IMG/VR virus record: IMGVR_UViG_3300003322_000558
Coordinates: 1 to 43,830 of that record
Direction: 5' to 3' (one strand)
DNA: 43,830 nucleotides
From: a virus
The notes beneath the pieces are model-generated. The model saw only the letters and a program-made list of their open reading frames with translations. It was not told where the DNA came from and made no database searches. The position numbers and the translations under genes are program-made. Numbering within the stretch: position 1 is the first letter of the stretch; every line of letters begins with the position of its first letter. This document shows, piece by piece, positions 5,786 to 33,380 of this stretch.

Positions 5786-6685
5786 CTATCGGGCTCGGCG
5801 ATACCAGATCTTGCACACCACCGTCAATGTGCTCACGGAGAAACCCGCGACCACGTTGAGGTTAAGCGTGGTCGTAGTTGCAAGCGAGAATCGCTGGGTG
5901 GGCACTGGCACGGCCACTGTTGTGCCAGTGCCTTGGTTGTTGATTTGCACGTAGTCTGGCGCCGCCGGGAGGCTGGCCCCAGTGGCAACACCTGCGCTCA
6001 ACGTATTGACTACTGTCGACCCGGCAGGGCTGAACGTGCACGAGCCGCCTACGGTGTAGTCGCCACCGCCAAGCGTGAGCGATGTCGCCGTGGCCAGAAC
6101 GCTGTTCGTTAGCGCCAGCGAAGTGTTCTGATTGCTGCCGTACTCGCCCCAAGCCCCTGCGTTCGCACTGTTGTTGGTGGTGGTGCCGACGATGCCGGCC
6201 GTTTGGCTAGGTGTAATGGCGCCCGTGGCGGTTAGCGCCGCCACGTTGACGGTGCCCGTAAAGGTGGGCGTGTCGCTGAAGACTACGCTACCGGTGCCTG
6301 TCTCGTTCGTCAGGACTGTGGCCAGCTGCGCAGACGTGGTGCTGGCGAATTGACCGAGCGTACCGCCGGTCAACGCGAACGTTGTGCCGCACGACAAGCC
6401 GGTATTGGTGGTGAATTGCAGCGCGCTGTTCGCCGTGCTGCAACTCGGAACCACAAACGCGGACGGCGCGGTGGATGCCCCGGTGAAGTTCCCCAGCACC
6501 CGATTTGCCGCGATGGGCGCCAGGCTGCCAGACGACACGGCGCCCCACGTTGGCGGCACGGCGGGGCCATTAGACACGATGGCCTGCCCCGCTGTCGACC
6601 CTGCTGGGCTGATGAGTTGCGGCGGCACGGTCTGCGCGAAGGCCGACGCGCTGAACAGCGCCAGAATTGCGAGGGTTCGTTTCAT
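5786..6685 (-). CDS. tail appendage-like protein with N-terminal signal peptide
   Basis: A 299-residue protein rich in Thr, Ser, Gly and Ala. The first 17-18 residues are a textbook Sec signal peptide (MKRTLAILALFSASAFAQ). The rest has segments such as GNFTGASTAPSAF and LGQFASTTSAQLATVL that are frequent in phage tail fibre shafts, with three cysteines (VPSCSTA, LSCGTT, GGSCTF). ATG 6685 overlaps the tailspike stop (TGATG); a GTG one codon upstream is less likely. It is placed as a tailspike companion, but the signal peptide is odd for a virion protein. Confidence 0.75.
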   Translation of the reverse strand: MKRTLAILALFSASAFAQTVPPQLISPAGSTAGQAIVSNGPAVPPTWGAVSSGSLAPIAANRVLGNFTGASTAPSAFVVPSCSTANSALQFTTNTGLSCGTTFALTGGTLGQFASTTSAQLATVLTNETGTGSVVFSDTPTFTGTVNVAALTATGAITPSQTAGIVGTTTNNSANAGAWGEYGSNQNTSLALTNSVLATATSLTLGGGDYTVGGSCTFSPAGSTVVNTLSAGVATGASLPAAPDYVQINNQGTGTTVAVPVPTQRFSLATTTTLNLNVVAGFSVSTLTVVCKIWYRRAR

Positions 6686-9084
6686 CACAGGTTCATCCCG
6701 AAATAGGAGAAAGTGGGCGCGACAGAGAAATTGACCGTGATACTGTCACCAGGATGCAGAAGGAATTGCCCGGAGGTGGCGCTATTGATGCCTACGCCAT
6801 TCATGCTAATACCCGTCACGGTTCCTCCAAAGACATTGAATCGGATGACGTATGCCAAGGTATTGACAAAAGGAACCCCACTCGTGATAGACGGCGTAGA
6901 AACCACAGAGTTAAGGAAAGTCCCCCGGTTTCCGCGGATCATCCGGTTCTGGCTACCCCCCGAATTGATCGCGAGGTTAAGCGGCTGGACAGCGCCAGCC
7001 AGATCGCAGTTGGAAATGGTGTAGTAATCCACATCGGCAGAAATTGCGACGGCGTACGCAGCCTGCCACGGGAAACCATCCGGCGTGTTGTCATAGCCTG
7101 CAGTAACGTCCGCTACCGTCGTGCCCACGCCCGCACTCAATGCTATGGCGGCAAGGTTGCCGAGCGCAGCGACGCGGTTTGTACCAGCGACGACCCCGCC
7201 CACGATTTGCACGCGGTTGGCCCCGTTTATGAGGTAGCCGTAGGCCCCCGCTGACACAACATTGCAGTTCGCGAATTCAAACACTCGGATAGCCCCAGGG
7301 CCGGCCAAGTAGATCGCAGTATCGTCCCAACATGCGAACCAGCACCCGGTAAATTTCACTCCGAACACGCCGCCACTTACGACACTAAGACTTTCTGCAG
7401 ACAGTACGCGATTGGCGATGTAATCGAAATACGTGTTATTGACATAAATGTTATTGATAATGACGCCCGCACTGGCTTGCAACTGGATGGCGTAATAGAA
7501 TCGCTCGATAAAACAGTTGTCCAGCTGTACCGTGTCCCACGTTGCGGAGTTGATCGTCAGGAAGTTCGTGCCGAAAACCGTGGTCATCGCACTTGTACGG
7601 TTCGGCGTCGGCGTCGGCACGGGCACAAACAGTCGGCATGAATCGAAAAAGAGACCGGCGCCTGTGCCGCAGACAAAGGCCGATTTTCCGATGTTGGCCA
7701 CATACCCAACCAAGTTTGTGAAATAGATCGCACCGGCGGGTCGCGTCGGGCTGCCCATCTGCGCAACCCTGCCCACGTTGATCAGATCGATGTTCTCGAA
7801 ATGCACCCGGTACGTATTTTCCATGTACCAGATCAGCGCATTCGCTCCGGGCGGGGCTAGGTACTCGATGGCGCAGTTCGAGAATTCACCATTCACCACC
7901 AGATCGGAACTGCCTGACGTGTTCCACGTGAATGTGGGGGCATTGGCGCTAAGAAGCAACTTAACCCCGGCGCGGCTCTCGCCGACGATAGCGATGCTTC
8001 CCTTCAGGATTGTGGTAACTGGCGCCGTGATCTTGTAGCGACCGTTCGGGATTTTAATGGTCACGCCAATCACATTCTGCGCATCGACGGAACCGGGGTT
8101 CAGCGAATTCGCGTAGGCAATGGCAGCGCTAAATGCCGCAGTATCGTCCGCAACCCCGTCACCCACGGCGTCGAAGTCCATCACGCTAACGGTCTCGCGC
8201 AGCTTGCTGTCGACGGTGCGGCTGGCTACCGCGCCTGCGTAGCCAGGGATGAACGCAAGTTTCGTGCTATTTATCGCGGCATTCGACGCAACCGTAGAAT
8301 CAGTGACCGAGCCAACGGGCGGAATCTGTGTCGACAACGTGGTGCCGATATAGCCCCAGATTTCCGTGACGTACGATGGGATCGGCGTCGTGAACGTCAG
8401 GACCGTGCCCGCCACGCTCCAGCCGGAGAAATCGCGCGGAACACCGTCCCAGTGCACCTCCAGATTGCCGGGTGAACCGGGCGCGCGCGGCAATGTTACG
8501 GACGTACTCACACCAGGGGTAAAGTCCGCACCCGCCACCAGTGTATAAGGGATACGATCTCCCGCACCCAGACTGGATGGGATTGGCAACACCGTCACGT
8601 TGCCCAGCGCATCGAACCCGATCACGGTATTGCCGCGCGCTGATTGCGCCGGCAGGGGTGCCAGCGGTGTGTCACTCACGCTGATCTTGATGGCGCGATC
8701 CGTGATTTCCTTTACTTGTTGAATCTGGATTTCCGCCCGGTCTAGCGCGTCCTCAACAACCTGCGCGAAGAACGGCCCCGGGTTTGGCAGGTCGGTCGGC
8801 TGCGTGTAGTCAAGGTCCCCCGTCAGCGTGAGCTTCTCACCAATCTGCAAGATCGTACCGCTGATCGGGTAGATGATAGTGCCGCCAGGGTTGTTGTCCT
8901 GGTTGCTATTCAGCACTACCGAATAGTCGGAATCGAGTACCAGATCGGCGTCAACTCCACTGGTACTCGTGAACGTGACCAGCACGTCCTCTTTCTTGAA
9001 AACCTTGAAGCTAAACGGAAAGGCAGTAGTGACGCCATTCCCAAGGAACGGCCCGGCCTTGCGGTTGGCGCTGGTGATGGTCAC
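6685..9084 (-). CDS. tailspike protein with pectate-lyase-type beta-helix
   Basis: A 799-residue receptor-binding protein. Residues 1-150 resemble the T7 gp17-type virion attachment domain (GNGVTTAFPFSFKVFKKEDV; later QVVEDALDRAEIQIQQV). After a linker, VMDFDAVGDGVADDTAAF near residue 300 marks the start of a pectate_lyase_3 beta-helix, a fold used by depolymerising tailspikes. The C-terminal end (about 730-799) is probably a trimerisation or receptor domain. The beta-helix region looks AT-richer than the late genes around it, consistent with domain exchange. The late-type promoter at 9119-9151 lies just upstream. Confidence 0.9.
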   Translation of the reverse strand: MTITSANRKAGPFLGNGVTTAFPFSFKVFKKEDVLVTFTSTSGVDADLVLDSDYSVVLNSNQDNNPGGTIIYPISGTILQIGEKLTLTGDLDYTQPTDLPNPGPFFAQVVEDALDRAEIQIQQVKEITDRAIKISVSDTPLAPLPAQSARGNTVIGFDALGNVTVLPIPSSLGAGDRIPYTLVAGADFTPGVSTSVTLPRAPGSPGNLEVHWDGVPRDFSGWSVAGTVLTFTTPIPSYVTEIWGYIGTTLSTQIPPVGSVTDSTVASNAAINSTKLAFIPGYAGAVASRTVDSKLRETVSVMDFDAVGDGVADDTAAFSAAIAYANSLNPGSVDAQNVIGVTIKIPNGRYKITAPVTTILKGSIAIVGESRAGVKLLLSANAPTFTWNTSGSSDLVVNGEFSNCAIEYLAPPGANALIWYMENTYRVHFENIDLINVGRVAQMGSPTRPAGAIYFTNLVGYVANIGKSAFVCGTGAGLFFDSCRLFVPVPTPTPNRTSAMTTVFGTNFLTINSATWDTVQLDNCFIERFYYAIQLQASAGVIINNIYVNNTYFDYIANRVLSAESLSVVSGGVFGVKFTGCWFACWDDTAIYLAGPGAIRVFEFANCNVVSAGAYGYLINGANRVQIVGGVVAGTNRVAALGNLAAIALSAGVGTTVADVTAGYDNTPDGFPWQAAYAVAISADVDYYTISNCDLAGAVQPLNLAINSGGSQNRMIRGNRGTFLNSVVSTPSITSGVPFVNTLAYVIRFNVFGGTVTGISMNGVGINSATSGQFLLHPGDSITVNFSVAPTFSYFGMNL

Positions 9085-9308: not shown

Positions 9309-12300
9309 TCACTTGTTGGGTGGCGGGCCCACCAGCAGCGCTCCCGGGTTCTCCGTCTTACCGTCGGCCAATGCTTGCAACCCGGACACCGTGGCGTTGA
9401 TCTGCCCTGCCGGGTAATGGAACACGATGCCGGCCGACGAGTTCAGCGCCTTCAGGAATGCCTCGTCCACCTCGCCCTGGGCGGCCTGCTTGCCCAGCTT
9501 GGCGAACTCCGCGAAGAAGCGCGCACCGCCCGGGCCGCTGTAGTCGCTGTACAGGCCAGTTGCACCTTGCACGGCGGCCGACACTTCGCGCAGACCCACC
9601 ACCGTGCCGAACAGGTAGTTGAGCTGGTCCGCGATCAGCGAACGCAGGAACTCGTCGTCATCGTCCGGGCCTCCGTGCAGCGCGGATTTCACCACTGTGC
9701 CGAGCAGTGCCGGCAGGGTGTAGAGCAGCGCCAGGTCGGCGGCGAGCAGCGCCACCTCCCGCGGCTTGCGGAAGTTGGTGCGCCCGACAGCCTCCGCAGT
9801 CAGGTTGTAGGTAGTCGAGAAGAAGCTGTAGAAATTCGTCCACAGCTTTTTCAGCGGGCCGCCCCGCTGAATGGCCGCGAGATCGCCGATCTGGCCGGCG
9901 CCCTGAGCGTCGCGCACCGCCTGGTCGGCCAACGCGATGGCCTTGTCTTCGGTCATGTCTTCCTTCGACATGGCCTTCTCGTAGGCACCCCACCACGTTG
10001 GCACGTCGGCAATCAACTGCGCCTTCTGAATCATGTAGAAGTACGATGCGTCGATCTTCTGACGCAGTTCGGACTTGCCCGACACCCGGTTCTGGATCTC
10101 GTTGATTTCACGGTTCAGCGTGTTCGCGCGCAGGCGCATGAAGTCGGACATCTCGTACATGTCCTTCATGCCTTTCTCCAGCCCGACAGCTCCGGCGGCC
10201 CAGTGGCTGGCGCCCTTCAGCACCCACTTCGGCCCGATGCGCACCGCGCTCTGCGTGAGCCCCAGCGGCTGCATCAGTGACGTGGTGAGTCGGTAGCCGA
10301 GGCCGGCTACCGTGGAACCGATGCGCAGATGGTTCAGCATGCGGCCCATCCACCCGTCAGCAGCGCTCTCACCGACTGCCACATCCTTCAGCGTGTCCTT
10401 CATCTGCTTCAGGATTTCGGGGCCATAGTGCCGGCGCACGGCTTCGTCCACGCCGCTGTTGCGTAGCAGGCGGTTCGCGTCGACCAGGTACTCGTGCCAG
10501 GCCAGGTCGTGGATCACCTGCTGCACGTGGTCGGTGATGACGCCGAGATCGTAGCGGATCGGGCGGCCGGTGGATTCCGTCCGCGATTTCAGGTGTCCGC
10601 GGCGGGTCTGCGCACGGGTGTACAGGCCGCGCTCGATCTGTTTCTGCACCTCGGCGTTGATGTCCGATTCGGCGCGCGAGCTGCGCAGTGCGTCATAGCT
10701 GATAGGGTAGTAGCCGCCCTTGAATTCGCCGAACTTCGTCTGCACGGGCTCGGCCTCCACCCACTCCGGCTCGACGCCCGTCAAGCGCTTTTCCTTGGCA
10801 GCGATCTGCGGGCGGAAGGAGTCGAGGTAGTCCCACACCCCCTGGACGAATTTCCAGTCTTCCTCGGTCAGCGTGTCGAGCAGGGTGTCGAGTTGCGAGG
10901 GGGTCAGGTTCTCGCCAGCGAGCACGCGTTCGCGGTTCACGGCGTTGCCCATGTTCAGCGCGATGCCCAGTCGTTCCTCCTTCGTGAACGACTTGCCGAT
11001 CTCCGGGAAGAACTGCTTGCGGTGCAGCCCCTTCTGTTTCAGGATCGGGCGCAGCAGTTCGCCCAGCTTCTTCGTGGCGCGCTCGTTCTCCACGGCCTCG
11101 AAGTCGCCGGCGCTGTTCATCGTGCGCACGAGGTATTCCCATGCCGCGCCGGCGTCCTGCCAGCCGTCGAACTCGCGCGCGTAGCTGGCGAACTTGCGGT
11201 GCTCGGCCTTGAACCCCCGGAACATACGGCGGATGTTCACGAGGCGCCCGCGATCGGAGGACCGTTCCTCCGGCACGACGCGCTTCGCGTTGTTCTCGAT
11301 CGAGGCGACCAGCTCGTCCACGGCCGCCTGGAATTCGCGCTGGTCCTTGGCGGTCAGCAGTTTCTTCTTCAGCCGGCCCAGGTGCTCGATGTTACGCACC
11401 GCGTCGGTCAGGCCGCGCAATTCCTCGACCGTCATGTCCTTATACGACTGGCGGCGTGCTTCATCCAGCAGGGCTGGGTCGATAATCGGTTCCAGCCCCT
11501 GTTCCTCCTGCGATTGCACCCACTCCAGCAGCGACTTGCGACGGTCGATGGCCGTCAGGCTCTGCCCGGTGCGCAGGTCGAACCGCTCCAGCAGTGCATC
11601 GATCTGCTCGCGGTAGGACGGATCGATGCTCTTGCGCGTCGATTCCTTGTCGAACTTCTTCAGGTAGTCGACCGACTTCTGGATCTCGTCCTGCGCCGCG
11701 TAGGCCGCCTTGGCCGCGTACGTGTTCACCAGCTGGTTGCGCTTCTCGGCAGCAGCCGTCTCCAGGTCGCCTTTCTTGAACGCGCGTTCGGACTCGCGCG
11801 CCGCACGCCCTTCAGCGGCCGTGTACTGCCCCGGCTTGACATCGCGCACGCGCAGCCGCGCGATCATCTGCTCGGCAAACTGGCGGGCGGCGCTGGCCAA
11901 CACGCGGCGATCGCCGATGGCCTGGTTCAGTGCGTTCAGCTCGGTGGCGATGAAGCGGGCGCGGGCGTCGTTATGGATGGCCGCGTCGGCGGCGCGGTCC
12001 ATGCTCTGCTTATCGGTCAGATCGCCATACCGCTCCAGCATGCGCTGGTCGGTCATGCCCTCGATGACGGAATCGACCGGCTCGGCGTCGAGCAGCGCGC
12101 GCACGAGCTGGTCGCCCGAGGTGTAGCCGAACATCTGCGCCGCCGCGTCCGGGCTGATACCGTCCTTGCCCAGCATGCCGTACCGGCCGTAACCCAGCTT
12201 GCTCCAGTCCAACAACGCGAACTTGTCACCCTCGCCACCGTACATGTCGCCCAGCGCGTCGATGTCGAGCTTGTGCGCATCGGCCGTGAACGGCTCGCCG

Positions 12301-15300
12301 TTGATCGTTGTCGTGCCACGGCGCAGGAACTGCATCGCGCTGTAGAGCGGCGTGGCGTAGACCTCGGCCTCTACCTCGTCGCGCACGGCGGCGCGCTGCG
12401 CGTCGGCCTGCTTCTGCAGGTCTTTCAGCACGCGACTGCGGGCGTTGTTCAGCCACTTCATGTCGCGCATGCTGCGCGTTTCCAGGTTCTGCAGCGCATC
12501 CTGCTGGGCTTCGCTGTTCAGGTTCTGGTAGGCGCGCCACTGGTTCTCGTCCATGCCGGCCGCCTGCGCCGAGTCGAACATGGGCGCGGCGCCTTCGATC
12601 ACCTGCTGTTCGGCGATGGCGTCGGACGTGGCCAGCATGCGGTCGAACACGCTGCGCACCTCGTCGGTCAACTGCACGTTCAGGCGTGCCAGGTTGCGGT
12701 AGACGTTGACGAGCCATGCGCGGAACCGCTGGAATACGCCGCGCAGTTCCTGGCTGGGTGCCTTTCCTTCAAACAGGTACGCCTCAAAGCCGCGCGCGAA
12801 CTGCTCGTGATTGTCGCGCTTCTGGTCGAGCGTCATGCCGCGCCACGTCTCGATGTCCGGCACGCCGAACCACTTCAGCACCGCGTCCATGTCGTCCTTG
12901 ATCTCCTGTGGCGCGTCGGGGCGTGCGGCGAGATCCGACAGCACCTCCAGGTAGAAGTGACCAGACTCGTGCAGGAACGTGGACAGGTCCGCGTTCTCCA
13001 GCAGGGTCAGGATCGGTGCCTGCTGCGTGATGTCACGCGGCACGGTGAGGCTACCACGTTCGCCTTGGTTGACCTGTGGGAATTTTACTTTGATCGACCC
13101 GCCGGGTTTTCCAGTGTCTATACGATAATCCGTGCGCCCATCTGGGAATTCGTCGTCGATCTGAAGCAAGGACGGGTCGATATTTATTGCCACTGCGGTG
13201 TCACCGTAACCCGTGTCGGTTTCCGCCCGTGTAGTTACATAGACATCAGGCTCGCCCGCAGATTTGAGACGCCCGGTCTGGCGGATCTGTGCAGCCTTGC
13301 CCGCGCTGGTGTGATGGTAAACAGTAACCGTACCGTCGGCGTTTAGTGGTAAACCGGTATCTTCGTCGATTTTTTGCGGTTGGTTGACCTGTTGCGGTGC
13401 GGCCGTGACGGTGTAGACGGGCGCGTTGTCGGGCGACTGCCAGCGGCCGTTCTCCAGCACTGCGGCTGGGTTCTTCTCGACGGTATAGCCCCGGCGAGCG
13501 AGCGCGTCGTACACACGAGACGCTGACTCTGACACCGCGCTATCACTATGAAGAATTTTCCCTTGGGCGATGGCGTAGTTCGCCAACTGCTCATACGCTT
13601 GGCGCGCAGCCCCCTTGCCTTGTTGATCGGGGTTTACATGGGACTCCGAAATGACAACAGCATTGGGCACCTCCTCACCGTAGACTTCGCCGACTTCCTG
13701 ATCGCCGCTACGGATGGTTTTGATAAAGTTGCTGTTTGCCGCCCACCGGCCACCAAGAGCCGCAGACGTGCTCCCGCTACCGAGCCATTCAGTATCGGTA
13801 AGCACTTGCTGTCTAGCCTGATCCGTGGTCAGCAGCGACGCGGCATGTTGGGGGTTTTGCTGTTGCCCAGCGTGCTCGTCCAGGCGTTGTTCGCCATCCA
13901 CCAGATCCTCTCGCGCGAACCGGATCGGGTAGCGCTGCGCGAATTCCTCGGGCGTCATGCCGGTGCGTGCGCCTTGCACGGCGTAGAAGTTCGACAGCAT
14001 GGTGGCGTACTGCTGGTTGACCTGCGGCGTGAAGCGGTTAACGGCGTCGAGCCGCTGGGCGATATCCTGCTGCACCGCATCGCGCGACGCCTTGAAAGCC
14101 TGGTCCGGCGCCTGCGCGGCCAGTGTGCGCTCGACCTCCTGCTGGAACTGGTTGGCGCCGGACTGCATGAATTCCTCGGCTTCCTTCTGGTTCATGCCCA
14201 GCGGGTCGGTCTTCAGGTACGGCACCAGCGGCGCGGACAGGTCGGTGCCGGCCACGTTGGTAGTGAACTCGTCCAGTGGGATGCGGATCGTGCCGCCCGT
14301 AGCGGTGGCCTCGGGCAGCTGCGCCGCGACCGACGGCGACACCTGCGCCAGCGCAGCCACGTCCACGCCGGATTGCGCCAGGCTCTGCACGTCGATGTAC
14401 ACGTCCTGCACGGGCCCGTCCGCTGTTGCCTCGCGCACGAACGCGCCGAACGTATCGGCGTCGCGCGGGCGCAGCTTGTTGACGGCGGCAAGCTGGTCCT
14501 GCTCGGTCAGCGCCGCCGCGTTGGCCTGCGCCTGCGCTGCATCCTGCTGCTTGCGCGTCATGCGGTCGCCCACGGCCTGCACGCCGCGCGCGGCACCAGT
14601 CAGCGCCCCACCCGCTACGATCGTGGCGACAAGGGTTTGCGCCAGCGCATCAGGCTGCTCCCGAATGTAATCGCCCACCGGTTTCTCCGGATTGAGCACC
14701 GCCCATTCGTTCAGATTCTGCAACGTGGTTGCAACAAGCTCGTTCGGAACTTCAGCCTTCAGTTGCTGCGTCACGAAGCTGAGCAGCGGCGTGCGCGCGT
14801 TAAGGTTGCGCAGGAACGTCGCCACAGGGAGTTTTTCAGTGGCGTATTCAATGGCCCCCTGGCTCACCCCGAACGGGATTGCCTGCTGTACAGGAACGCC
14901 CTTATCGCGCGCTTCGCCGTACGCCTGCCCTGCTGTAGTGGCAGTCAACAACGGCAGAAGACCGGCAGCCCCGCCAGTGGCCAGCGCGGAGCCCAGTTGC
15001 CCGACAGACTGCAACCCCGAATAAACGCCTGCTTCGATATTGCCGGACGCCTGTGGGATCAAGCTTTTCGACATCACATCTTGCTCGCGGCGCCACTGCG
15101 CCACGCCCGCCGCGACGCGTGCGAATGGGTTCTCCGGCAGCAGTTGAGCCGCCAACCCGACAGGCCCTTCGGAGAAAGATATTGGGCGCTGGCGCGCCTG
15201 ATCGGCGCCTTGCGCCAGCGTGTCAAAGAACGATTGCACCCCGCCATACAGACCGGAGGTGAACGATGGGCCAACACCGGCAACCACTGACTTCGCCCCG

Positions 15301-15728
15301 CCAGACAGGTAGCGCAGCGTGCGCTCGATCCCGCTCAGGTTCTCGGTATCGTCCCGACTGATCGCGGCCGTCTGCGGCGTGGCCAGCAGGCCGGACGTGG
15401 CCGGCGACTGGAACGCCAGTTTCTCGTAATCGATGCTGTCGATCACGTCGCGCCGCTCGTAATCCTTCTGCTGCAGCCGCACCGTCTCGGCTGGCACCCC
15501 GTACTTGCGGCCCAGCGCCTGCACGCGCGCCTCGGCGTCCGGGTTCTGGTCGGCCGTCTGCATGACCGACACCCGGTACGGCGTCGATTTCGTGCCGGAG
15601 TCGATGACCTGCAGGTAGGGGTTGGGCTCGGCTGTCGGGCCGGCCGGCACCTGTGCCGCTGCATCGGCGGGGCTGGCCGGGGGCGGTGCGTCGGGAACCA
15701 GCGAGAGGTACGGATTCTGATCAGCCAT
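9309..15728 (-). CDS. giant ejected virion protein with polyvalent-type domains (2139 aa)
   Basis: The largest gene, last of the ejection set. Regions by residue: 1-60 Pro/Ala-rich; 100-400 Gly/Ala-rich helices that may insert in membrane; about 645-770 an acetyltransferase-like segment (VNPDQQGKGAARQAYEQL is GNAT motif A-like); about 790-890 an ADP-ribosyltransferase-like segment (TVYHHTSAGKAAQIRQTG, YVTT); 920-924 HESGH, a zincin metallopeptidase motif with downstream GFEAYLFEG; then long charged helices, and near residue 2000 a hydrophobic stretch (LLAADLALLYTLPALLG). Such mixtures are known from phage polyvalent proteins injected with the genome. It probably also plays the T7 gp16 channel role. 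Domain calls are by motif reading only; the ORF itself is certain. Confidence 0.85.
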   Translation of the reverse strand: MADQNPYLSLVPDAPPPASPADAAAQVPAGPTAEPNPYLQVIDSGTKSTPYRVSVMQTADQNPDAEARVQALGRKYGVPAETVRLQQKDYERRDVIDSIDYEKLAFQSPATSGLLATPQTAAISRDDTENLSGIERTLRYLSGGAKSVVAGVGPSFTSGLYGGVQSFFDTLAQGADQARQRPISFSEGPVGLAAQLLPENPFARVAAGVAQWRREQDVMSKSLIPQASGNIEAGVYSGLQSVGQLGSALATGGAAGLLPLLTATTAGQAYGEARDKGVPVQQAIPFGVSQGAIEYATEKLPVATFLRNLNARTPLLSFVTQQLKAEVPNELVATTLQNLNEWAVLNPEKPVGDYIREQPDALAQTLVATIVAGGALTGAARGVQAVGDRMTRKQQDAAQAQANAAALTEQDQLAAVNKLRPRDADTFGAFVREATADGPVQDVYIDVQSLAQSGVDVAALAQVSPSVAAQLPEATATGGTIRIPLDEFTTNVAGTDLSAPLVPYLKTDPLGMNQKEAEEFMQSGANQFQQEVERTLAAQAPDQAFKASRDAVQQDIAQRLDAVNRFTPQVNQQYATMLSNFYAVQGARTGMTPEEFAQRYPIRFAREDLVDGEQRLDEHAGQQQNPQHAASLLTTDQARQQVLTDTEWLGSGSTSAALGGRWAANSNFIKTIRSGDQEVGEVYGEEVPNAVVISESHVNPDQQGKGAARQAYEQLANYAIAQGKILHSDSAVSESASRVYDALARRGYTVEKNPAAVLENGRWQSPDNAPVYTVTAAPQQVNQPQKIDEDTGLPLNADGTVTVYHHTSAGKAAQIRQTGRLKSAGEPDVYVTTRAETDTGYGDTAVAINIDPSLLQIDDEFPDGRTDYRIDTGKPGGSIKVKFPQVNQGERGSLTVPRDITQQAPILTLLENADLSTFLHESGHFYLEVLSDLAARPDAPQEIKDDMDAVLKWFGVPDIETWRGMTLDQKRDNHEQFARGFEAYLFEGKAPSQELRGVFQRFRAWLVNVYRNLARLNVQLTDEVRSVFDRMLATSDAIAEQQVIEGAAPMFDSAQAAGMDENQWRAYQNLNSEAQQDALQNLETRSMRDMKWLNNARSRVLKDLQKQADAQRAAVRDEVEAEVYATPLYSAMQFLRRGTTTINGEPFTADAHKLDIDALGDMYGGEGDKFALLDWSKLGYGRYGMLGKDGISPDAAAQMFGYTSGDQLVRALLDAEPVDSVIEGMTDQRMLERYGDLTDKQSMDRAADAAIHNDARARFIATELNALNQAIGDRRVLASAARQFAEQMIARLRVRDVKPGQYTAAEGRAARESERAFKKGDLETAAAEKRNQLVNTYAAKAAYAAQDEIQKSVDYLKKFDKESTRKSIDPSYREQIDALLERFDLRTGQSLTAIDRRKSLLEWVQSQEEQGLEPIIDPALLDEARRQSYKDMTVEELRGLTDAVRNIEHLGRLKKKLLTAKDQREFQAAVDELVASIENNAKRVVPEERSSDRGRLVNIRRMFRGFKAEHRKFASYAREFDGWQDAGAAWEYLVRTMNSAGDFEAVENERATKKLGELLRPILKQKGLHRKQFFPEIGKSFTKEERLGIALNMGNAVNRERVLAGENLTPSQLDTLLDTLTEEDWKFVQGVWDYLDSFRPQIAAKEKRLTGVEPEWVEAEPVQTKFGEFKGGYYPISYDALRSSRAESDINAEVQKQIERGLYTRAQTRRGHLKSRTESTGRPIRYDLGVITDHVQQVIHDLAWHEYLVDANRLLRNSGVDEAVRRHYGPEILKQMKDTLKDVAVGESAADGWMGRMLNHLRIGSTVAGLGYRLTTSLMQPLGLTQSAVRIGPKWVLKGASHWAAGAVGLEKGMKDMYEMSDFMRLRANTLNREINEIQNRVSGKSELRQKIDASYFYMIQKAQLIADVPTWWGAYEKAMSKEDMTEDKAIALADQAVRDAQGAGQIGDLAAIQRGGPLKKLWTNFYSFFSTTYNLTAEAVGRTNFRKPREVALLAADLALLYTLPALLGTVVKSALHGGPDDDDEFLRSLIADQLNYLFGTVVGLREVSAAVQGATGLYSDYSGPGGARFFAEFAKLGKQAAQGEVDEAFLKALNSSAGIVFHYPAGQINATVSGLQALADGKTENPGALLVGPPPNK

Positions 15729-17856
15729 TATTTGCGAGAGGGGTGACGCCCAGGCTGCGGCGATAGAGTTGCTGGCGGGTCGTGTCGTTGATCGGATAGC
15801 CGCGCTGGCGCAGGGCGTCGTCGATCAGCTTTACCTGATCCTTCGGGATCACCACGGTCTGCTGGTCGGTCACGGCGCCAGCCGGCGTCTTCTTGTCCAG
15901 CCAGAAGGGGCGGTCCACCTCAACCTGCGTGAAGATCTGCGCGGCGATGGCGCGCTGCTCGGCTTCGGAGGTCTTCTTGCCGGTGGCGGCTTCCTGTGCC
16001 TGCAGGCGCTGCGAGTAGGCGGCCGTCAACCGGCCGACCGTTTTGGCGTCGTCGGTGCCCGGCTTCGCATTGGGATTGATGCCAGCTTCCTTGATGAACT
16101 GCTTCAGGATGCCGTCGGCCGACTGCAGGCGCGTGAACACGTCGTCCTTGCCAGCCTTCAGGTCGGTCTGCAACCCGACCAGCTGCTTGTACTCGGTGTC
16201 GGCCAACTGGTTGCGCAGCGCGCCTAGGTTCGTGCGCGCGAGCACCTGCGGATCGCGCCGCAAGTCGTAGTACAGATCCCAGTTCGTCTCAATCGGCACG
16301 CCCTTGGCAAGCTTGCCGGCGAAGGCCATCATGTTGTCGAACTGGCCGGGCGGGATCGAGGCGCGCACGTCGCTCGGCAGCGCGGCGAAGTTGCCGCCGT
16401 TGGCGATCAGTTGGCGTTGCACGTTCTCGACAGCCTGGTCTTCGCGCTGCTTGATCGCAGCCGTCTGCTCGTTGTACTGGCGCGTAGCCGTCTCGCGCGC
16501 GATAGCGCGGCGCTGCGGGCTGGCGGTGGGGCCCAGCGTGTCCTCGACCTGCCGGTGGATATCCTCCAGCGTCGGTCGCGCCGGCGTGCCGCCTCCGGCG
16601 TTGTAGCCGCCCATGATGCGCGACACGTAGGTCTGCGTCTCCTTGGGCAGGTACGCCAGCCACTGCTGCGGCGTGCCATTCTTGTTGGCCTCGCGCACCG
16701 CGGCGTCTACCGCGCCGGGGCCCGCGTTGTAGGCGGCCAGCCCCTGCGGCACGTTGCCCTGGTACTTCTGCAGCATGGCCTGCAGGTAGTCGCGGCCCAC
16801 GCGGGCGCGCTCGTCCGGCGTGTCGTCCTGCGCGGGCTTGACGCCGAACCCGGGGTTGGTGTTGGTGCTGTCGAGCACCTGCATCTCGCCCTTCGCCCCC
16901 TTGGGCGAGGTCAGCAGTTGCCCGTCGGCGGCGTAACGCTGTCCGCGCGACTCCTGCCCGATGACCAGGTTCGTCAGCCGTTGGAAGTCCGTAGGCACCA
17001 TGCTCGACTGATTCTGCACCATCACCTGCGTGGCGGCGGCTTGCCCGATCTTGGCATCGGCCTCTTTCGTGATCAACCCGTTCGCCTTCAGGATGTCGTT
17101 AGCATCCATCTGGTCGGCGTACTTCTTCATGTACTGATCGGCGTAGATCGGGTCGTTGCTCTGCAGCGCGGCCTGGATCGCGGTGAAATGCGCGTTGCTG
17201 ACCTGGCGCTTGACTTGCGCCTCTGCCCATTCCGCCGACTTGCCGTTGAGTTTGGCCAGGTCGTAGGTGGCCGCGCGGATCGAGCCGACCGACTCGTCGA
17301 TCACGTCGGGGTTGTTGTAGTTCCGGCCGATGTCATCCAGTCGATTGGCGATCGTGCCCTCGCGCACCGAGTTGGCGTAGCCCCGGAACTCCGCGTTCTC
17401 GTGCTGCATCAGCCCGTTGCGGAACCCCTGAAGGATGCCGGCCGATTGCCGTGCGAATTGCTGACGCTGGGCGTCGTTGCCCAACGCGCCGGCGATGTTG
17501 GAGAAGGAGGTCTGCAGCTGGCCGCCATAGTCGTCGGCGAGCGACTGACCGTTCGGGCGCTGCAAGGCGGCCTGGCCCTTCAAGGTGGTGTACCCCTGCT
17601 GCGGGTCGTACGTCAGCTTGGCCGCCGCCTCGCGCGCCTGGTTCACGGCGTCGTCCACGCGCAACTGGTTGGCGTAGTCAATCTCCTGCTGCTGGATCTT
17701 GAACGTGGTGTCCAGCAGCTGATTGCCGGCCTGTGTCAGCGCGGCGCCCTGGCGCGCGGCGATGTCGGTGCCGATCTCGCGCGGGGCTTCGAACTGGGCG
17801 CTGGGCAGGCCAGCGCGCTGGACGGTTGGGCTATCTACGGTCGGGACGCGGGCCAC
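15721..17856 (-). CDS. internal virion protein with lytic transglycosylase domain
   Basis: A 711-residue protein with a lysozyme-like SLT domain at about residues 293-385: IGQESRG (catalytic Glu at 302), SPKGAKGEMQV, and GLAAYNAGPGAV. The flanks are long Gln/Ala-rich helices (DTTFKIQQQEIDYANQL; RQYNEQTAAIKQREDQAVENV). It corresponds to the T7 gp15/gp16 ejection proteins, where the SLT domain locally cuts peptidoglycan during DNA entry. Start is GTG 17856 with GGAG upstream. It overlaps the giant gene by 8 bases. Confidence 0.88.
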   Translation of the reverse strand: MARVPTVDSPTVQRAGLPSAQFEAPREIGTDIAARQGAALTQAGNQLLDTTFKIQQQEIDYANQLRVDDAVNQAREAAAKLTYDPQQGYTTLKGQAALQRPNGQSLADDYGGQLQTSFSNIAGALGNDAQRQQFARQSAGILQGFRNGLMQHENAEFRGYANSVREGTIANRLDDIGRNYNNPDVIDESVGSIRAATYDLAKLNGKSAEWAEAQVKRQVSNAHFTAIQAALQSNDPIYADQYMKKYADQMDANDILKANGLITKEADAKIGQAAATQVMVQNQSSMVPTDFQRLTNLVIGQESRGQRYAADGQLLTSPKGAKGEMQVLDSTNTNPGFGVKPAQDDTPDERARVGRDYLQAMLQKYQGNVPQGLAAYNAGPGAVDAAVREANKNGTPQQWLAYLPKETQTYVSRIMGGYNAGGGTPARPTLEDIHRQVEDTLGPTASPQRRAIARETATRQYNEQTAAIKQREDQAVENVQRQLIANGGNFAALPSDVRASIPPGQFDNMMAFAGKLAKGVPIETNWDLYYDLRRDPQVLARTNLGALRNQLADTEYKQLVGLQTDLKAGKDDVFTRLQSADGILKQFIKEAGINPNAKPGTDDAKTVGRLTAAYSQRLQAQEAATGKKTSEAEQRAIAAQIFTQVEVDRPFWLDKKTPAGAVTDQQTVVIPKDQVKLIDDALRQRGYPINDTTRQQLYRRSLGVTPLANNG

Positions 17857-17859
17857 GGG

Positions 17860-18507
17860 TTACTCCGAATCCGGGTATTGGAACTGGTCGACATACGTGC
17901 CGCGTGTGCCGCCACTGGCGGCCGTGGCAAGGGGAACGCGGCCGTAGCGTTTGTACCACTTGTCCGCGATCGAGGAAGCGCTGCCCAGTAACGAGGTTGC
18001 GCCAGCCATGCCCGGGCTGATGGCATCGGCGCCGGCCTGCAGCGCCGCGCCGCGCGCGGTGGCATTGGCAGCGTTCACGCGGTAGCCAAAGGCTGTACGC
18101 GCGGCGTTGTTGGCGAGCGTGGCCACGTCGACATCGCGGATGTAGTCGGTGGAGCGTTGCACGGCGGCGGGTGAACCTTCGTTGACGTTCACCCCGTTGG
18201 CGGCGAAGGCGGCGCGCTGCGCGCCCTTGACCTGCCGCGCGCGCTGGCGCACGTCGATGCCCGCCTGCACCCCCTGACGGATGGCGTCCTGCGCCTGCAG
18301 TTCGGCCAGTGCCGAATTCAGGTTTGATACGTACGCCTGGTTGGCGAGTTCGGTTTTCTGCGAGGCGGCGGATAGCTCCGCGCTTTTCGCCTGCCCGAGC
18401 GCATTTACCCCCGCCCCGATCAAGGCGCCATACCCTCCGCCACCCCCCAAAAGGCTACCGGCACCGCTCGTCGCGGCCCCAGCGCCGCCTGCACTAGCGA
18501 AACACAT
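17860..18507 (-). CDS. internal virion protein, T7 gp14-like
   Basis: A 215-residue protein starting MCFASAGGAG, then Gly-rich hydrophobic segment (LLGGGGGYGALIGAGVNALG) and a long Ala/Gln helix (AELSAASQKTELANQAYVS...LQAQDAIRQG). The Met-Cys start, N-terminal hydrophobic stretch and long helix match T7 gp14-type ejection proteins. It lies between the gp13-like protein and the transglycosylase, the same order as T7 genes 13-16. Confidence 0.75.
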   Translation of the reverse strand: MCFASAGGAGAATSGAGSLLGGGGGYGALIGAGVNALGQAKSAELSAASQKTELANQAYVSNLNSALAELQAQDAIRQGVQAGIDVRQRARQVKGAQRAAFAANGVNVNEGSPAAVQRSTDYIRDVDVATLANNAARTAFGYRVNAANATARGAALQAGADAISPGMAGATSLLGSASSIADKWYKRYGRVPLATAASGGTRGTYVDQFQYPDSE

Positions 18508-25600: not shown

Positions 25601-27286
25601 TCAGACTCCCGGCAACGTGTAGCCCTGGAACTGGTTGATGAGGTCTGTCAATCCGTTCGGCTGCGCCGTGTTGATCGAACCGAGATCTTTGGCCGTGCTG
25701 GCGGCGCTCTGCGCGGCGGCCATCATCTGCGCGGCCTGCTGTTGCTGCGCGCGCTGCTGGCGCACGACCGCCACCTGCTCGTTGCCGACGATGATTCGGG
25801 GGTCGACGCCGAGCTGGTCGGCGTACTGGTCGACCCAGGCGTCGCTGTCGAACTTGTCGAGCACGTCGGGCTTGAAGCTGGCCACCTGGCCGAGCGCGGC
25901 CACGAAGCGGTTGGTGCTGTTGGCGCCGATGGCGCGCTGTGCCTGCGCCAACACGCTCACGAACTCGATATTCAGCTCCTGGCCCTGCAATTCCTGCGGC
26001 GGGGGCGGGAACAGGCCGAGCGTGAGCATACGGTCGAAGGTGTACTCAACCAGCGGGTTCAGCGCCTCGTCGTGCAGCCGCTCGATCGTCGGCCCGAGCA
26101 CGGTCAGCTTTTCCTCGTGCAGTTCGGCCACCTCGGTTGCGGTCTTCTCGCGCCCGACGTCGTTCTGCAGCATCAGGAACAGGTCGGTGAAGAACCCGCG
26201 GCGGATGCGCTGGCGCACGTCCACGATGTCGGCGGCCAGGTGCGACAGGTCGAGGTTGACGTCCCACATGCTGCGGATGCCCGCCTGCGGACTCGCGCCG
26301 TCGTAGAACGTCACGCCGCCGGGCAGCATCTCCACGTCGCGATCCTTCAGAACGCTGGGCACCTGGAGGGGCGGCCGGGTCTTGTAGTCGATCGCCTCGG
26401 CCTTGCGCAGTTGCTCGTGCTGGAGCTGCTTCGTGCTGCCGAGCACCAGCATGCCGGGGCTATTGCCGTAGATGTCGCCACCATAGACCGACCAGCGCGG
26501 CACGATGGCCGGGAAACGTTTGAAGCCGGACTTGCGCAGCCAGTTGCCATCAAGCGCGCCTTCCTCCATATACCATGACTTCCACTCCATGTTCTGCGCA
26601 TCGCGCTTGGTGGGGTCGCGGTCGGCGTTGGGCTCGACCAGGTGGTAGATCGTGACCCATGTGTCCAGCTCGTGGTTGTCGTAGAGCGACTGGGTGGACG
26701 GGCAGCAGTTCTTGTAGCCGAACTCCTTCACGATCTGGCCGACCGTCTTCTGGTACTTGCGCATGATCACGTCCACCTCGCCGCGGTAGTTCGCGGAGAT
26801 GCGGTATTCGCCGGTGGTCAGCGGGTAGCCATGGAAGACGGTGTTGAAGTCGTCCATCAGGAACGTGGCGGCCGTGCCGTAGACGCCCAGCTCCATGTAC
26901 ATGTTGTGCAGGAAACCGTACGTGTTGTTGCGCTGGAACAGGTCCAGCATGCGGCGCGTGCACGCGTTCAGCCACAGCTTCACGCTGTGGTAGTCGTTCA
27001 GGTCAGGATCGGCCGTCTGCAGGCGGAACCACGGGCGGGCCGGGCTCGACATGCCGGACTGCATGCCGGCGCCGAGCACGCCGAGCGCGTACGTGGCTTC
27101 TTCGTCGTAGATGTTGCCGTACCGCTTCCGGCCGTCGTTCCTGTCGGTCTCGAAGTACCGGCCGCTGAACGGGAGGAAGAAGTCGGTGCAATCCTGGTAG
27201 ACCGATCGCCAGCTGGTCCAGTCGAGGTCGAGCGAGCCCCACCTGCGGTAGAACTCGTTGCGGTCCATCTTGGCATCGATGTACAT
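25601..27286 (-). CDS. portal (head-to-tail connecting) protein
   Basis: A 561-residue protein of the podovirus head-tail connector family (PF12236 type): start DRNEFYRRWGSLDLDW, TDFFLPFSGRYF, ALGVLGAGMQSGMSSPARPWF, then MYMELGVYGTAATF and DVGREKTATEVAEL. The C-terminal Gln/Ala-rich tail (QQQRAQQQQAAQMMAA-like) is typical. It forms the 12-fold ring for DNA packaging and tail attachment. Confidence 0.92.
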   Translation of the reverse strand: MYIDAKMDRNEFYRRWGSLDLDWTSWRSVYQDCTDFFLPFSGRYFETDRNDGRKRYGNIYDEEATYALGVLGAGMQSGMSSPARPWFRLQTADPDLNDYHSVKLWLNACTRRMLDLFQRNNTYGFLHNMYMELGVYGTAATFLMDDFNTVFHGYPLTTGEYRISANYRGEVDVIMRKYQKTVGQIVKEFGYKNCCPSTQSLYDNHELDTWVTIYHLVEPNADRDPTKRDAQNMEWKSWYMEEGALDGNWLRKSGFKRFPAIVPRWSVYGGDIYGNSPGMLVLGSTKQLQHEQLRKAEAIDYKTRPPLQVPSVLKDRDVEMLPGGVTFYDGASPQAGIRSMWDVNLDLSHLAADIVDVRQRIRRGFFTDLFLMLQNDVGREKTATEVAELHEEKLTVLGPTIERLHDEALNPLVEYTFDRMLTLGLFPPPPQELQGQELNIEFVSVLAQAQRAIGANSTNRFVAALGQVASFKPDVLDKFDSDAWVDQYADQLGVDPRIIVGNEQVAVVRQQRAQQQQAAQMMAAAQSAASTAKDLGSINTAQPNGLTDLINQFQGYTLPGV

Positions 27287-31169: not shown

Positions 31170-33380
31170 CTATTTTTTGCGCCATCCTCGTGTCACAACC
31201 CCCTCCACGCGCAAAGTCACCTTTTCGAAGCCCAATGCTTGCAAAACTTTGCCCATTCGCATTTCTTCACGCTTCCCTATCTGCTTCGCCTCTAAGTGGA
31301 TCGCGCCGCGTAGAACGTCGACGCCTCGGATTATTGGCTCGCTGAGTAGTCCCGCTTCGATGAAAGATTCCTTTCCTTCTTCCTGCTCGAGCCAGGTTTC
31401 GACGATAGACTCCCATGCATCGCGGATGGTGTATTCGTTGTGCGCCTCACCGGCCAACCTCTCCACCTGCCACATCACCCCGTTCCGTTCGAACAAGGCC
31501 CGGCCCTCGGCCCACAACTGCGCCGCATCGCGCTGCACTGCCGCCCGATCTGCGTGCGTCACCCTGACCGGCAGCCAGCGGCGATTGCCGGTCTCATCGG
31601 CTAGGAATTCGTCTTTGTTGGTGGTGCCGACGAAGACCAGCCGGCGGGGGAAGGTGGTTGTAAATTCGCGGAACTTTGGTACCCATTTCTCGTGGGTGCG
31701 GGTGATGAAGGCTTTGATGGACTCGAGGTCCTTTGAGTTGAGCCCGCGCAACTCCCCGATTTCGCCCACCAATGTGCCGCGCATCTTGCGCGCGAGGTTG
31801 TCGTCCTTCTCGTTGAAATCGATTTCGACGAAGAACTCTGGGGCTGGCGCCATGGCCGCCACTGCCGAGGATTTGAGCAATCCTTGTTCCCCCACCAGGA
31901 TGGGGACCATATCGGCCTTCACCCCAGGCTGCAGCACCCGCCCGGCCAGCGCGGACCACAAGTACAAGGACACCCCGCGTACATATGGCGAATCATCCAC
32001 TCCAAAGTATGTGGATAGGAACTGCTCGACGCGTGGTTTTCCATCCCACAACTGCCGGCCGAGCCACAATTGAGCGGTATCGAACCTGTTTTCCGAGGCC
32101 ACCAACAGCACCACGTCGCGCATCATCTCCTTGCCGATGGGTTTGAAACCCCCCACCTCGAGCGCTTGGCGCATACGGGTATAATCGGCGTCTTCGAACG
32201 CGCGCCAGTTGCCCCCACCATCCGCGCTCACCATGATCTCGTCACGGAACGTGTCGAACTGGATTCGTCCGCCGCAGACGTCCGGCCGGCCCAGCGCCAT
32301 GTGGAGATTGTCGATCGTGGCCAAGATCTCACCGGCCTTGTTTCGTCGGAAGGAGGGCAGCGCCTCTACTTCGGCACCCGCCGCGTCCACCAGTGCTGGC
32401 AGCGCCTCGAATTCGTCGGCGATGGGCTCCTGCCAGCCGTGCTCGCGCGCCACGCGCCAGAGCGTGCCGACAGTGATGGCGCCGTGTTCGGCCCCGTTGT
32501 CGTCCGACGCGTACGGCCACGCCCGTTCATCGACGAACGACGCTACGTACTTGCTTGAGCGCGCGCTGAACTCATGCAACAGCGCCAAACCGTCGGGGGA
32601 ACCTCCGCTACCGTGGTGGATAGCGAACATGATGTTGCGCCAATCGTCGTAGGCCAAACCCTCCCCATCGTTCGGGATGGCCGCCAGCGCGCTGCGCATG
32701 CGCTCGATGTTGGCGTCTCCTGCACCCACCTCGGGGCGTTCTGCCACCTCGCGGACCACGACAGGCACGGCCGGGGAGATCGGCCATTCCATCGCCGCGG
32801 CATCCTCCTTGGGAAGATCGGCCATGGTGAGGGGGCACAGCGGCACCGACGCGCCCGCCAACGGCAGAATGAACATGTTGCCGTACTTGCCTTCGGCCAC
32901 GCTGTTCTGCTTGGGGAATATCTCCACCTCGCGCCGCGCCACCCCACCGTCGCCCGGCTTGAGGCCACGCACCTGCAACGCGCTCTGGAGCATCGTGCGC
33001 ACGCTGTAGGCGTCCTGTGGCGCTTCCCACAGCAGGTAGATGTGGATGCCGTGTCCACCGCTGGAGCGGAACGCCAGTGGGGACATGCCGTGCGCCTCCA
33101 GTTCGGACATCAGTTCGCTGGCCACGGCCAGCATGTCGGGCCAGGGCGTCTCACCCTTGTGGCTGTCCAGGTCCAGCACGGCCACCATGGTGGTGTCCTG
33201 GCCTGGCAGGATCGGCGCCGCGCCGTACGCGGGCCCCCCGTTCACATGTTTGTCGAGCTTGGCCGCGGTCAGCGGGCTGTCGATGCGCCGCGGGCCGTCC
33301 GGGGTCTTCTTCCAGCAGATGTCGGTGCGCACACGACTCAAGATGGGATCGAGGGCCTTGACCAGATCGGGATGCTTCAT
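31170..33380 (-). CDS. primase-helicase (TOTE-type primase, PriCT, VapE ATPase)
   Basis: A 736-residue replication protein. Residues 1-180 are an archaeo-eukaryotic primase domain (VLDLDSHKG at 68-76 with D-x-D, SGGHGIHIYLLWE at 107-119). Residues 225-315 match PriCT (YDDWRNIMFAIHHG). Residues 440-640 are a VapE-type P-loop domain with GEQGLLKSS at 497-505, where the usual Gly before Lys is Leu, as in several phage relatives, and NRRWLPV at 599-605. ATG 33380 overlaps the methyltransferase stop; GTG 33389 is an alternative. It should prime and unwind at the phage origin. Confidence 0.9.
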   Translation of the reverse strand: MKHPDLVKALDPILSRVRTDICWKKTPDGPRRIDSPLTAAKLDKHVNGGPAYGAAPILPGQDTTMVAVLDLDSHKGETPWPDMLAVASELMSELEAHGMSPLAFRSSGGHGIHIYLLWEAPQDAYSVRTMLQSALQVRGLKPGDGGVARREVEIFPKQNSVAEGKYGNMFILPLAGASVPLCPLTMADLPKEDAAAMEWPISPAVPVVVREVAERPEVGAGDANIERMRSALAAIPNDGEGLAYDDWRNIMFAIHHGSGGSPDGLALLHEFSARSSKYVASFVDERAWPYASDDNGAEHGAITVGTLWRVAREHGWQEPIADEFEALPALVDAAGAEVEALPSFRRNKAGEILATIDNLHMALGRPDVCGGRIQFDTFRDEIMVSADGGGNWRAFEDADYTRMRQALEVGGFKPIGKEMMRDVVLLVASENRFDTAQLWLGRQLWDGKPRVEQFLSTYFGVDDSPYVRGVSLYLWSALAGRVLQPGVKADMVPILVGEQGLLKSSAVAAMAPAPEFFVEIDFNEKDDNLARKMRGTLVGEIGELRGLNSKDLESIKAFITRTHEKWVPKFREFTTTFPRRLVFVGTTNKDEFLADETGNRRWLPVRVTHADRAAVQRDAAQLWAEGRALFERNGVMWQVERLAGEAHNEYTIRDAWESIVETWLEQEEGKESFIEAGLLSEPIIRGVDVLRGAIHLEAKQIGKREEMRMGKVLQALGFEKVTLRVEGVVTRGWRKK

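What the first reader, a model, noticed from the sequence alone, without database searches (positions are those of the whole stretch)
12900..13830. Acetyltransferase-, ADP-ribosyltransferase- and metallopeptidase-like segments inside the giant ejected protein
The 2139-residue protein combines a GNAT-like motif (QQGKGAARQAYEQL), an ART-like YHHTSAGKAAQIRQTG segment and HESGH. Phage polyvalent proteins deliver such enzymes with the genome to counter host defences. The stretch 13070-13830 looks AT-richer than the flanking coding DNA, suggesting a recent insertion of the first two modules.
Basis: partly seen in the sequence, partly recalled or inferred. Interest (0 to 1): 0.72.

Follow-up and report, generated by a model that had tools for sequence, protein, structure and literature searches.

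The report
Swappable enzyme cargo in phage ejection protein
A giant protein that this bacterial virus probably injects with its DNA carries two exchangeable enzyme modules in a variable 'cargo slot': an acetyltransferase-like one and a small ADP-ribosyltransferase-like one that has no model in the libraries searched, is common in uncultured phages and was not found in a large collection of isolated phages.

Summary
The three motifs and the AT-rich stretch are real. The 2139-aa protein (9309-15728, minus strand) is a Bbp10-type polyvalent protein (BPP-1 relatives), encoded next to a lytic transglycosylase and a T7 gp14-family protein, so it is probably ejected. Residues ~620-890 are not a simple insert but a variable cargo slot: relatives carry a PBECR1 nuclease, ART-PolyVal or other sequence there. 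HESGH lies outside it, in the conserved framework. Module 1 is a GNAT (a relative's copy passes the Pfam cut-off; this one misses by 0.3 bit). Module 2 (~100 aa) has a confidently predicted ADP-ribosyltransferase-like fold with conserved H805, Y830 and DDE858-860, yet no Pfam, NCBIfam or PDB sequence match. At least 171 IMG/VR contigs encode it; no INPHARED record does. It has moved between backbones, and a T4-like phage carries it alone behind a T4-like capsid-targeting peptide. The metallopeptidase rests on motif conservation only; the fold search found no zincin. 'Recent' is weak: a 78%-identical relative has the same cassette. New lead: a [LFYV]-x-Q tag precedes the module in proteins with the HExxH domain (26/36) but in no complete one without it (0/10), suggesting built-in release. 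Enzymatic activity and counter-defence remain inference.

The parts
9309..15728 (-). 2139-aa giant polyvalent-type ejection protein (Bbp10 family, phrog_9880)
   Evidence: ORF; phrog_9880 1602 bits; 46% identity to BPP-1 Bbp10 over 86%
15291..15569 (-). LPD22 (large polyvalent protein associated domain 22), residues 54-146
   Evidence: PF18834 E 8.1e-21, above cut-off
13059..13868 (-). variable cargo slot, residues ~621-890; no match to isolate relatives, which carry other domains or unmatched sequence here
13047..13919 (-). low-GC3 segment (residues 604-894), GC3 0.619
   Evidence: change-point and synonymous shuffles
13389..13793 (-). GNAT acetyltransferase-like module (residues ~646-780), motif A QQGKGAA at 13584-13625
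   Evidence: Pfam Acetyltransf_1 E 6e-4 (20.4 bits; cut-off 20.7); relative L009 24.6 bits
13074..13379 (-). small ART-fold module (residues ~784-885)
   Evidence: A3 alignment; AF2 pLDDT 87.7; Foldseek
13314..13316 (-). H805, predicted first catalytic residue (44/44 sequences)
13239..13241 (-). Y830, predicted second catalytic residue (43/44 Y, 1 F)
13149..13157 (-). D858-D859-E860, invariant acidic run, predicted third catalytic position
   Evidence: 44/44
13380..13392 (-). junction tag QVNQ before the ART-like module; 13-bp copy 1 (ACAGGTCAACCAA on the minus strand)
13065..13077 (-). junction tag QVNQ after the ART-like module; 13-bp copy 2
12957..12971 (-). HESGH, residues 920-924, putative zinc-binding helix of the framework
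   Evidence: HExxH invariant in alignment A6; helix in model
12777..12809 (-). second helix HEQFARGFEAY with invariant E975 and E982, candidate third zinc ligand
15721..17856 (-). neighbouring ejection-type protein with lytic transglycosylase SLT domain
   Evidence: PF01464 E 1.4e-13
17860..18507 (-). T7 gp14-family internal virion protein
   Evidence: PF24072 E 2e-7, above cut-off

Best explanation
The protein is the large ejection protein of a BPP-1-like podovirus that doubles as an effector carrier. A conserved framework (LPD22-bearing N-terminal part; HExxH domain and ~1200-residue C-terminal part) carries a variable slot just before the HExxH domain. Here the slot holds a GNAT module and a small ART-fold module. 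Proposed action: the protein enters the cell ahead of or with the DNA together with the transglycosylase and gp14-like partners; in the cell the ART module uses NAD+ to ADP-ribosylate a host macromolecule and the GNAT module acylates a host protein, in favour of the infecting phage. The HExxH domain may release modules by cleaving at the [LFYV]-x-Q junction tags. Shown here: architecture, variability of the slot, exchange of the ART module between backbones, predicted ART fold and conserved H-Y-(D/E) residues, GNAT motif. Inferred: ejection, enzymatic activity, targets, peptidase function, release.
For: Framework shared with BPP-1 Bbp10 and relatives outside the slot only. Slot contents differ: PBECR1 in BPP-1, ART-PolyVal in BL94, ctEw122 and DC33, no Pfam match in HU1 and PfDIW6; 21 of 39 slots carry ART-PolyVal. 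Gene neighbours are SLT and T7 gp14 families. ART-like module: AF2 pLDDT 87.7; all PDB hits with probability at or above 0.89 are entries that I know as ADP-ribosyltransferase-fold proteins (6b, TreTu, RhsP2); BFVD hits include an annotated phage ART and PARP catalytic domains; invariant H and DDE, Y in 43/44. Mobility: 62-76% identity of the module where the backbone is 18-56%; module and backbone trees reject each other's clades; stand-alone copies. Head packaging in another phage type: in T4-like L102/L106 (gp32-type SSB and helicase-loader neighbours) the stand-alone copy starts MKSFKEFISE, against MKTFKEFTST in T4 IPI, and two adjacent genes begin alike. GNAT.
Against: No activity, packaging or cleavage data. 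ART fold hits in the PDB have TM about 0.40-0.47 and E of 0.04 or more, and the module does not match ART-PolyVal in profile comparison. The GNAT lacks a clear N-terminal half. The HExxH domain model gave no zincin match, possibly because upstream strands were not included. The junction tag was found after the fact in related sequences.
Confidence: 0.62

Rival explanations
1. The slot modules are degenerate remnants that serve only as spacers or structural parts of the ejection channel.
For: The GNAT appears truncated, matching only about the second half of the Pfam profile; slot length varies from about 130 to about 1340 residues in relatives, so no fixed fold is needed there.
Against: The ART-like module keeps invariant active-site-type residues over 44 diverse copies, occurs alone with a capsid-targeting-like peptide and in plasmids; GNAT motif A is kept.
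Confidence: 0.15
2. The ART-like module is not a macromolecule modifier but an NADase, NAD+ phosphorylase or RNA 2'-phosphotransferase-like (KptA/Tpt1) enzyme.
For: The most frequent weak Pfam match is PTS_2-RNA (7 of 16 members, best E 0.011), also an ART-superfamily family. PMC9503650 describes NADases or NAD+ phosphorylases among the macromolecule-modifying ART clades.
Against: H-Y-(D/E) pattern rather than the H-H-h pattern that PMC9503650 gives for the RNA-repair clade; the nearest solved folds, TreTu and RhsP2, modify macromolecules (own knowledge).
Confidence: 0.25
3. One reading: one recent insertion of GNAT+ART into an uninterrupted ancestral protein.
For: Sharp GC3 boundary at residues 604-894; no counterpart of the cassette in the isolate relatives.
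Against: Relatives have other cargo, not an empty site; a 78% relative shares the cassette and its lower GC3; the ART module occurs without this GNAT in nearly all other loci.
Confidence: 0.1
4. The [LFYV]-x-Q tags are recombination seams or an inherited linker, not cleavage sites.
For: In the window the two tags are a 13-bp direct repeat that could promote in-frame loss or gain; framework proteins are all related.
Against: Elsewhere the same tag is written in different synonymous codons, so selection appears to act on the protein; it is absent upstream of the module in 10 of 10 complete proteins without the HExxH domain.
Confidence: 0.5

Closest known systems
Bbp10 of Bordetella phage BPP-1 and Rauchvirus relatives (Caulobacter phages BL94, SR18)
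   Same: Framework on both sides of the slot (34-51% identity), LPD22, HExxH domain, adjacent gene for a putative cell-wall-degrading protein (transglycosylase note in BPP-1)
   Different: Slot holds PBECR1 (BPP-1) or ART-PolyVal (BL94) instead of GNAT plus the small ART
Polyvalent proteins with GNAT next to ART (Iyer et al. 2017, PMC5512222)
   Same: They report one GNAT family that typically neighbours an ART in the same phage polypeptide; MPTase hub
   Different: Their ART is the N4-type (Roseovarius podovirus) polyvalent ART; the one here is not matched by PF18760 or any other Pfam model and does not align to ART-PolyVal by profile comparison
ART toxins TreTu (7zhm) and RhsP2 toxin domain (7rt7)
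   Same: Best structural matches together with Agrobacterium 6b
   Different: Low TM-score (0.40-0.47); no sequence match; delivered by Rhs proteins, not phage
T4 internal proteins and Alt
   Same: Head-packaged injected proteins; a stand-alone copy of the module in a T4-like phage bears a similar N-terminal targeting peptide
   Different: In the window the module sits inside a podoviral ejection protein

Membership tests
Polyvalent protein (Iyer 2017) | Large phage protein linking unrelated enzymatic domains | tested here: met
   2139 aa; LPD22, GNAT, ART-like fold, HExxH
Polyvalent protein (Iyer 2017) | Delivered into the host with the DNA | not testable with these tools
   Only indirect: SLT and T7_gp14 neighbours
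ART superfamily | ART fold | tested here: met
   Confident AF2 model; fold hits to known ARTs with probability 0.89-1.00 but moderate TM
ART superfamily, H-Y-[EDQ] clade | H in strand 1, Y in strand 2, acidic residue in a later strand | tested here: met
   H805 44/44, Y830 43/44, D858/D859/E860 44/44; exact third residue unresolved
ART-PolyVal (PF18760) | Pfam or profile match | tested here: not met
   No match; hhalign probability 1.6%
GNAT (PF00583) | Pfam score above the cut-off | tested here: inconclusive
   20.4 bits against 20.7; the 78% relative has 24.6
GNAT | Motif A (R/Q-x-x-G-x-G/A) | tested here: met
   QQGKGAA at residues 702-708
Zincin-like MPTase of polyvalent proteins | HExxH helix followed by a helix with Glu ligand | tested here: met
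   Invariant H920, E921, H924 and E975/E982; helices in model
Zincin-like MPTase of polyvalent proteins | Zincin fold (three-stranded sheet plus helices) | tested here: inconclusive
   Only two strands modelled; no zincin in the fold search
T4-type capsid targeting (L102/L106, not the window) | N-terminal peptide like that of T4 internal proteins | tested here: met
   MKSFKEFISE against IPI MKTFKEFTST, 7 of 10 identical; three tandem genes with the pattern, 0 of 200 shuffles reach 3

The most novel reading that the evidence does not exclude
The ejection protein is a self-processing cargo train: modules are clipped in and out of a fixed slot and are bracketed by a [LFYV]-x-Q tag that the built-in HExxH peptidase recognises, freeing small effectors (including a previously unmodelled mini-ART family) after injection.
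Probability: 0.22. Interest if true: 0.78.

Novelty: new variant of a known kind. Interest (0 to 1): 0.55.

Why it matters
Polyvalent proteins were predicted to deliver enzymes, but which parts are cargo, how cargo changes and how it is freed is open. Here the slot boundaries are sharp enough to test by deleting cargo in a BPP-1-type laboratory phage. The small ART-fold module (about 100 aa, 171 or more viral contigs, no Pfam or NCBIfam model, none in 50,697 INPHARED records) is a new small effector family to assay, and its occurrence as a T4-type internal-protein candidate points to injection by two different routes.

Tried and rejected
One simple recent insertion: rejected because relatives fill the slot with other content and a 78% relative shares the cassette. 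Assignment of module 2 to ART-PolyVal (PF18760), PTS_2-RNA or Tox-ART-HYD1: no significant match. Direct PDB sequence match for the whole protein or module 2: none credible. Zincin proof by fold search: failed. Phage isolates encoding module 2: none. Mixed GNAT+ART alignment for folding: discarded because a GNAT fragment was misaligned. A plasmid relative might be half of a toxin-antitoxin pair, but its upstream neighbour has no recognisable domain. No literature on Bbp10 function was found. A reverse transcriptase (BPP-1 tropism switching): a crude YxDD-type scan of the window showed none.

Full report
What is there. The window holds a minus-strand ORF of 2139 codons, 9309-15728. The window is an IMG/VR virus record. 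Its nearest isolate relatives over this gene are Bordetella phage BPP-1 (Bbp10) and Caulobacter Rauchvirus phages, 45-46% identical over about 86%. The gene next to it encodes a transglycosylase SLT domain and the following one a T7 gp14-family internal virion protein, both above Pfam cut-offs. I take this as a T7-like ejection-protein cluster; delivery itself is inferred.

A cargo slot. BPP-1 and BL94 align with residues 46-619 and 859-2136 only, and the more distant isolates likewise do not align with about 653-876. What relatives carry in the gap differs: PBECR1 nuclease in BPP-1; ART-PolyVal in BL94, ctEw122 and DC33; stretches with no Pfam match in HU1 and PfDIW6. Over 49 proteins the slot (end of the N-terminal block to the HExxH domain) runs from about 130 to about 1340 residues. 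Of 39 slots scanned, 21 contain ART-PolyVal and a few contain GNAT, PBECR1, LPD23, Pribosyltran or DUF6782. So the right picture is a variable slot, not a single insertion.

Composition. GC3 in residues 621-890 is 0.619 against 0.820 +- 0.022 in 2000 synonymous-codon shuffles, and the best single low segment, 604-894, coincides with the slot. The closest relative (L008, 78% identical) carries the same pair of modules, also GC3-poor (0.72 and 0.77 against 0.84-0.92). The acquisition therefore probably predates their split; 'recent' is only relative. A second, weaker low-GC3 segment (142-379) shows that composition alone does not prove an insertion.

Module 1, GNAT. Pfam Acetyltransf_1 scores 20.4 bits in the window (cut-off 20.7) and 24.6 in L009, the same contig as L008; motif A is intact; the N-terminal half of the profile is not matched. 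Two other viral loci carry close relatives of this GNAT. Iyer et al. 2017 (PMC5512222) report that a GNAT family in phage polyvalent proteins typically neighbours an ART, so the pairing is not new.

Module 2, a small ART-fold module. Residues about 784-885 define a family of roughly 100 aa: 171 viral contigs confirmed in one scan, seven contigs of bacterial genomes or MAGs, and remote plasmid copies in Actinobacteria. It has no significant Pfam, NCBIfam or PDB sequence match; PHROGs gives only weak matches to families of unknown function. No INPHARED record matched in four searches, although BFVD holds a 58%-identical uncharacterised protein of an uncultured phage. AlphaFold2 on 44 sequences gave pLDDT 87.7 and pTM 0.77. 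The PDB hits with probability at or above 0.89 are Agrobacterium 6b, TreTu and RhsP2, entries that I know to be ART-fold proteins (TM 0.40-0.47, E 0.04 or more). BFVD neighbours include an annotated mycobacteriophage ART and PARP catalytic domains. H805 and D858-D859-E860 are invariant and Y830 is Y in 43 of 44, the H-Y-acidic pattern that PMC9503650 gives for the H-Y-[EDQ] clade. It is not ART-PolyVal: profile comparison failed, and L025 carries both kinds side by side. I conclude: ART fold likely (about 0.9), active transferase plausible (about 0.65), target unknown.

Mobility and delivery. Leaving out the 78% relative, the window's module is 62-76% identical to copies in proteins whose HExxH domain is 36-56% and N-terminal block 18-47% identical. 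Module data reject the backbone clade L024+L059+L028+L029 (AU p 2e-53), and backbone data reject the module clades L021+L024+L030 (p 0.008) and L059+L108+L020 (p 5e-5); the clades were named after seeing the trees. Stand-alone copies exist (L022/L023, 112 aa; L102/L106, 109 aa). L102 is T4-like (gp32-type SSB and helicase loader). Its copy starts MKSFKEFISE and the two genes before it start MLSFKQFISE and MLTFKQFFDE; T4 IPI starts MKTFKEFTST. A DNA pattern for this start finds exactly these three sites, and no shuffle of 200 reaches three. The T4 propeptide is known to target proteins into the head, from which they are injected (PMC9026906, PMC3012670). This is indirect but independent support that the module is an injected effector.

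HExxH domain. HESGH belongs to the framework. H920, E921, H924, E975 and E982 are invariant in 41 aligned sequences. The model places HExxH and the second Glu-bearing motif on two consecutive long helices, as in the polyvalent MPTases described by Iyer et al., but shows only two strands and no zincin hit. In L013 an insertion separates the two helices. I call it a probable metallopeptidase, unproven.

Junction tags. Before module 2 and before the HExxH domain a short tag [FLYVMI]-x-Q-[GQS] recurs: 29 of 46 junction windows against 9.4% of other 25-residue windows. It is present upstream of the module in 26 of 36 proteins with the HExxH domain and in 0 of 10 complete proteins without it (Fisher p 5e-5; rows are related and the motif was chosen after the fact). 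In the window QVNQ brackets module 2 on both sides as a 13-bp direct repeat; elsewhere codons differ. The simplest readings are a processing site of the built-in peptidase or a conserved linker; only biochemistry can tell.

Verdict. New here: a slot with sharp boundaries, an ART-fold family without a model in the libraries searched, its occurrence behind a T4-like targeting peptide, and the tag association.

Noticed in passing
L102:6614-9303: Three consecutive genes of a T4-like phage (615, 155 and 109 aa) start with a T4-internal-protein-like peptide; the third is the ART-fold module, the second looks ART-like by eye (not tested), the first matches no PHROG.
   Followed up: partly
window 14592-15305 (residues 142-379): Second low-GC3 segment (0.69) in the giant gene, in sequence that does align to BPP-1; the 78% relative is not GC3-poor there. 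Unexplained.
   Followed up: partly
L115:2075-3411: Actinobacterial plasmid: a 138-aa relative of the ART-fold module overlaps the end of a 307-aa gene of unknown function by 4 bases; possible toxin-antitoxin or effector-partner pair, near a VbhA/Fic pair.
   Followed up: partly
L086, L094, L104, L105: Phage proteins of 430-522 aa with a constant frame: the ART-fold module, a shared linker, then a variable second region (some ART-PolyVal-like by eye) and a shared C-terminal end; looks like a second modular effector design.
   Followed up: no
window 6685-9084: 799-aa protein with pectate-lyase-like fold (PF12708), probably the tail spike, with low GC3 (0.69).
   Followed up: no
window 25601-27286, 31170-33389, 40780-43377: Head-tail connector (PF12236), primase-polymerase with VapE-like domain, and family A DNA polymerase: podovirus core genes.
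   Followed up: no
L013, residues about 1085-1340 of its ORF (start 5145): Large insertion between the HExxH helix and the second Glu-bearing helix: possibly another cargo position inside the peptidase-like domain.
   Followed up: no
L026/L114 and L113: Relatives of the window's GNAT sit in different large phage proteins; in L026 the QxxGxG motif is altered and Pfam does not recognise it.
   Followed up: no
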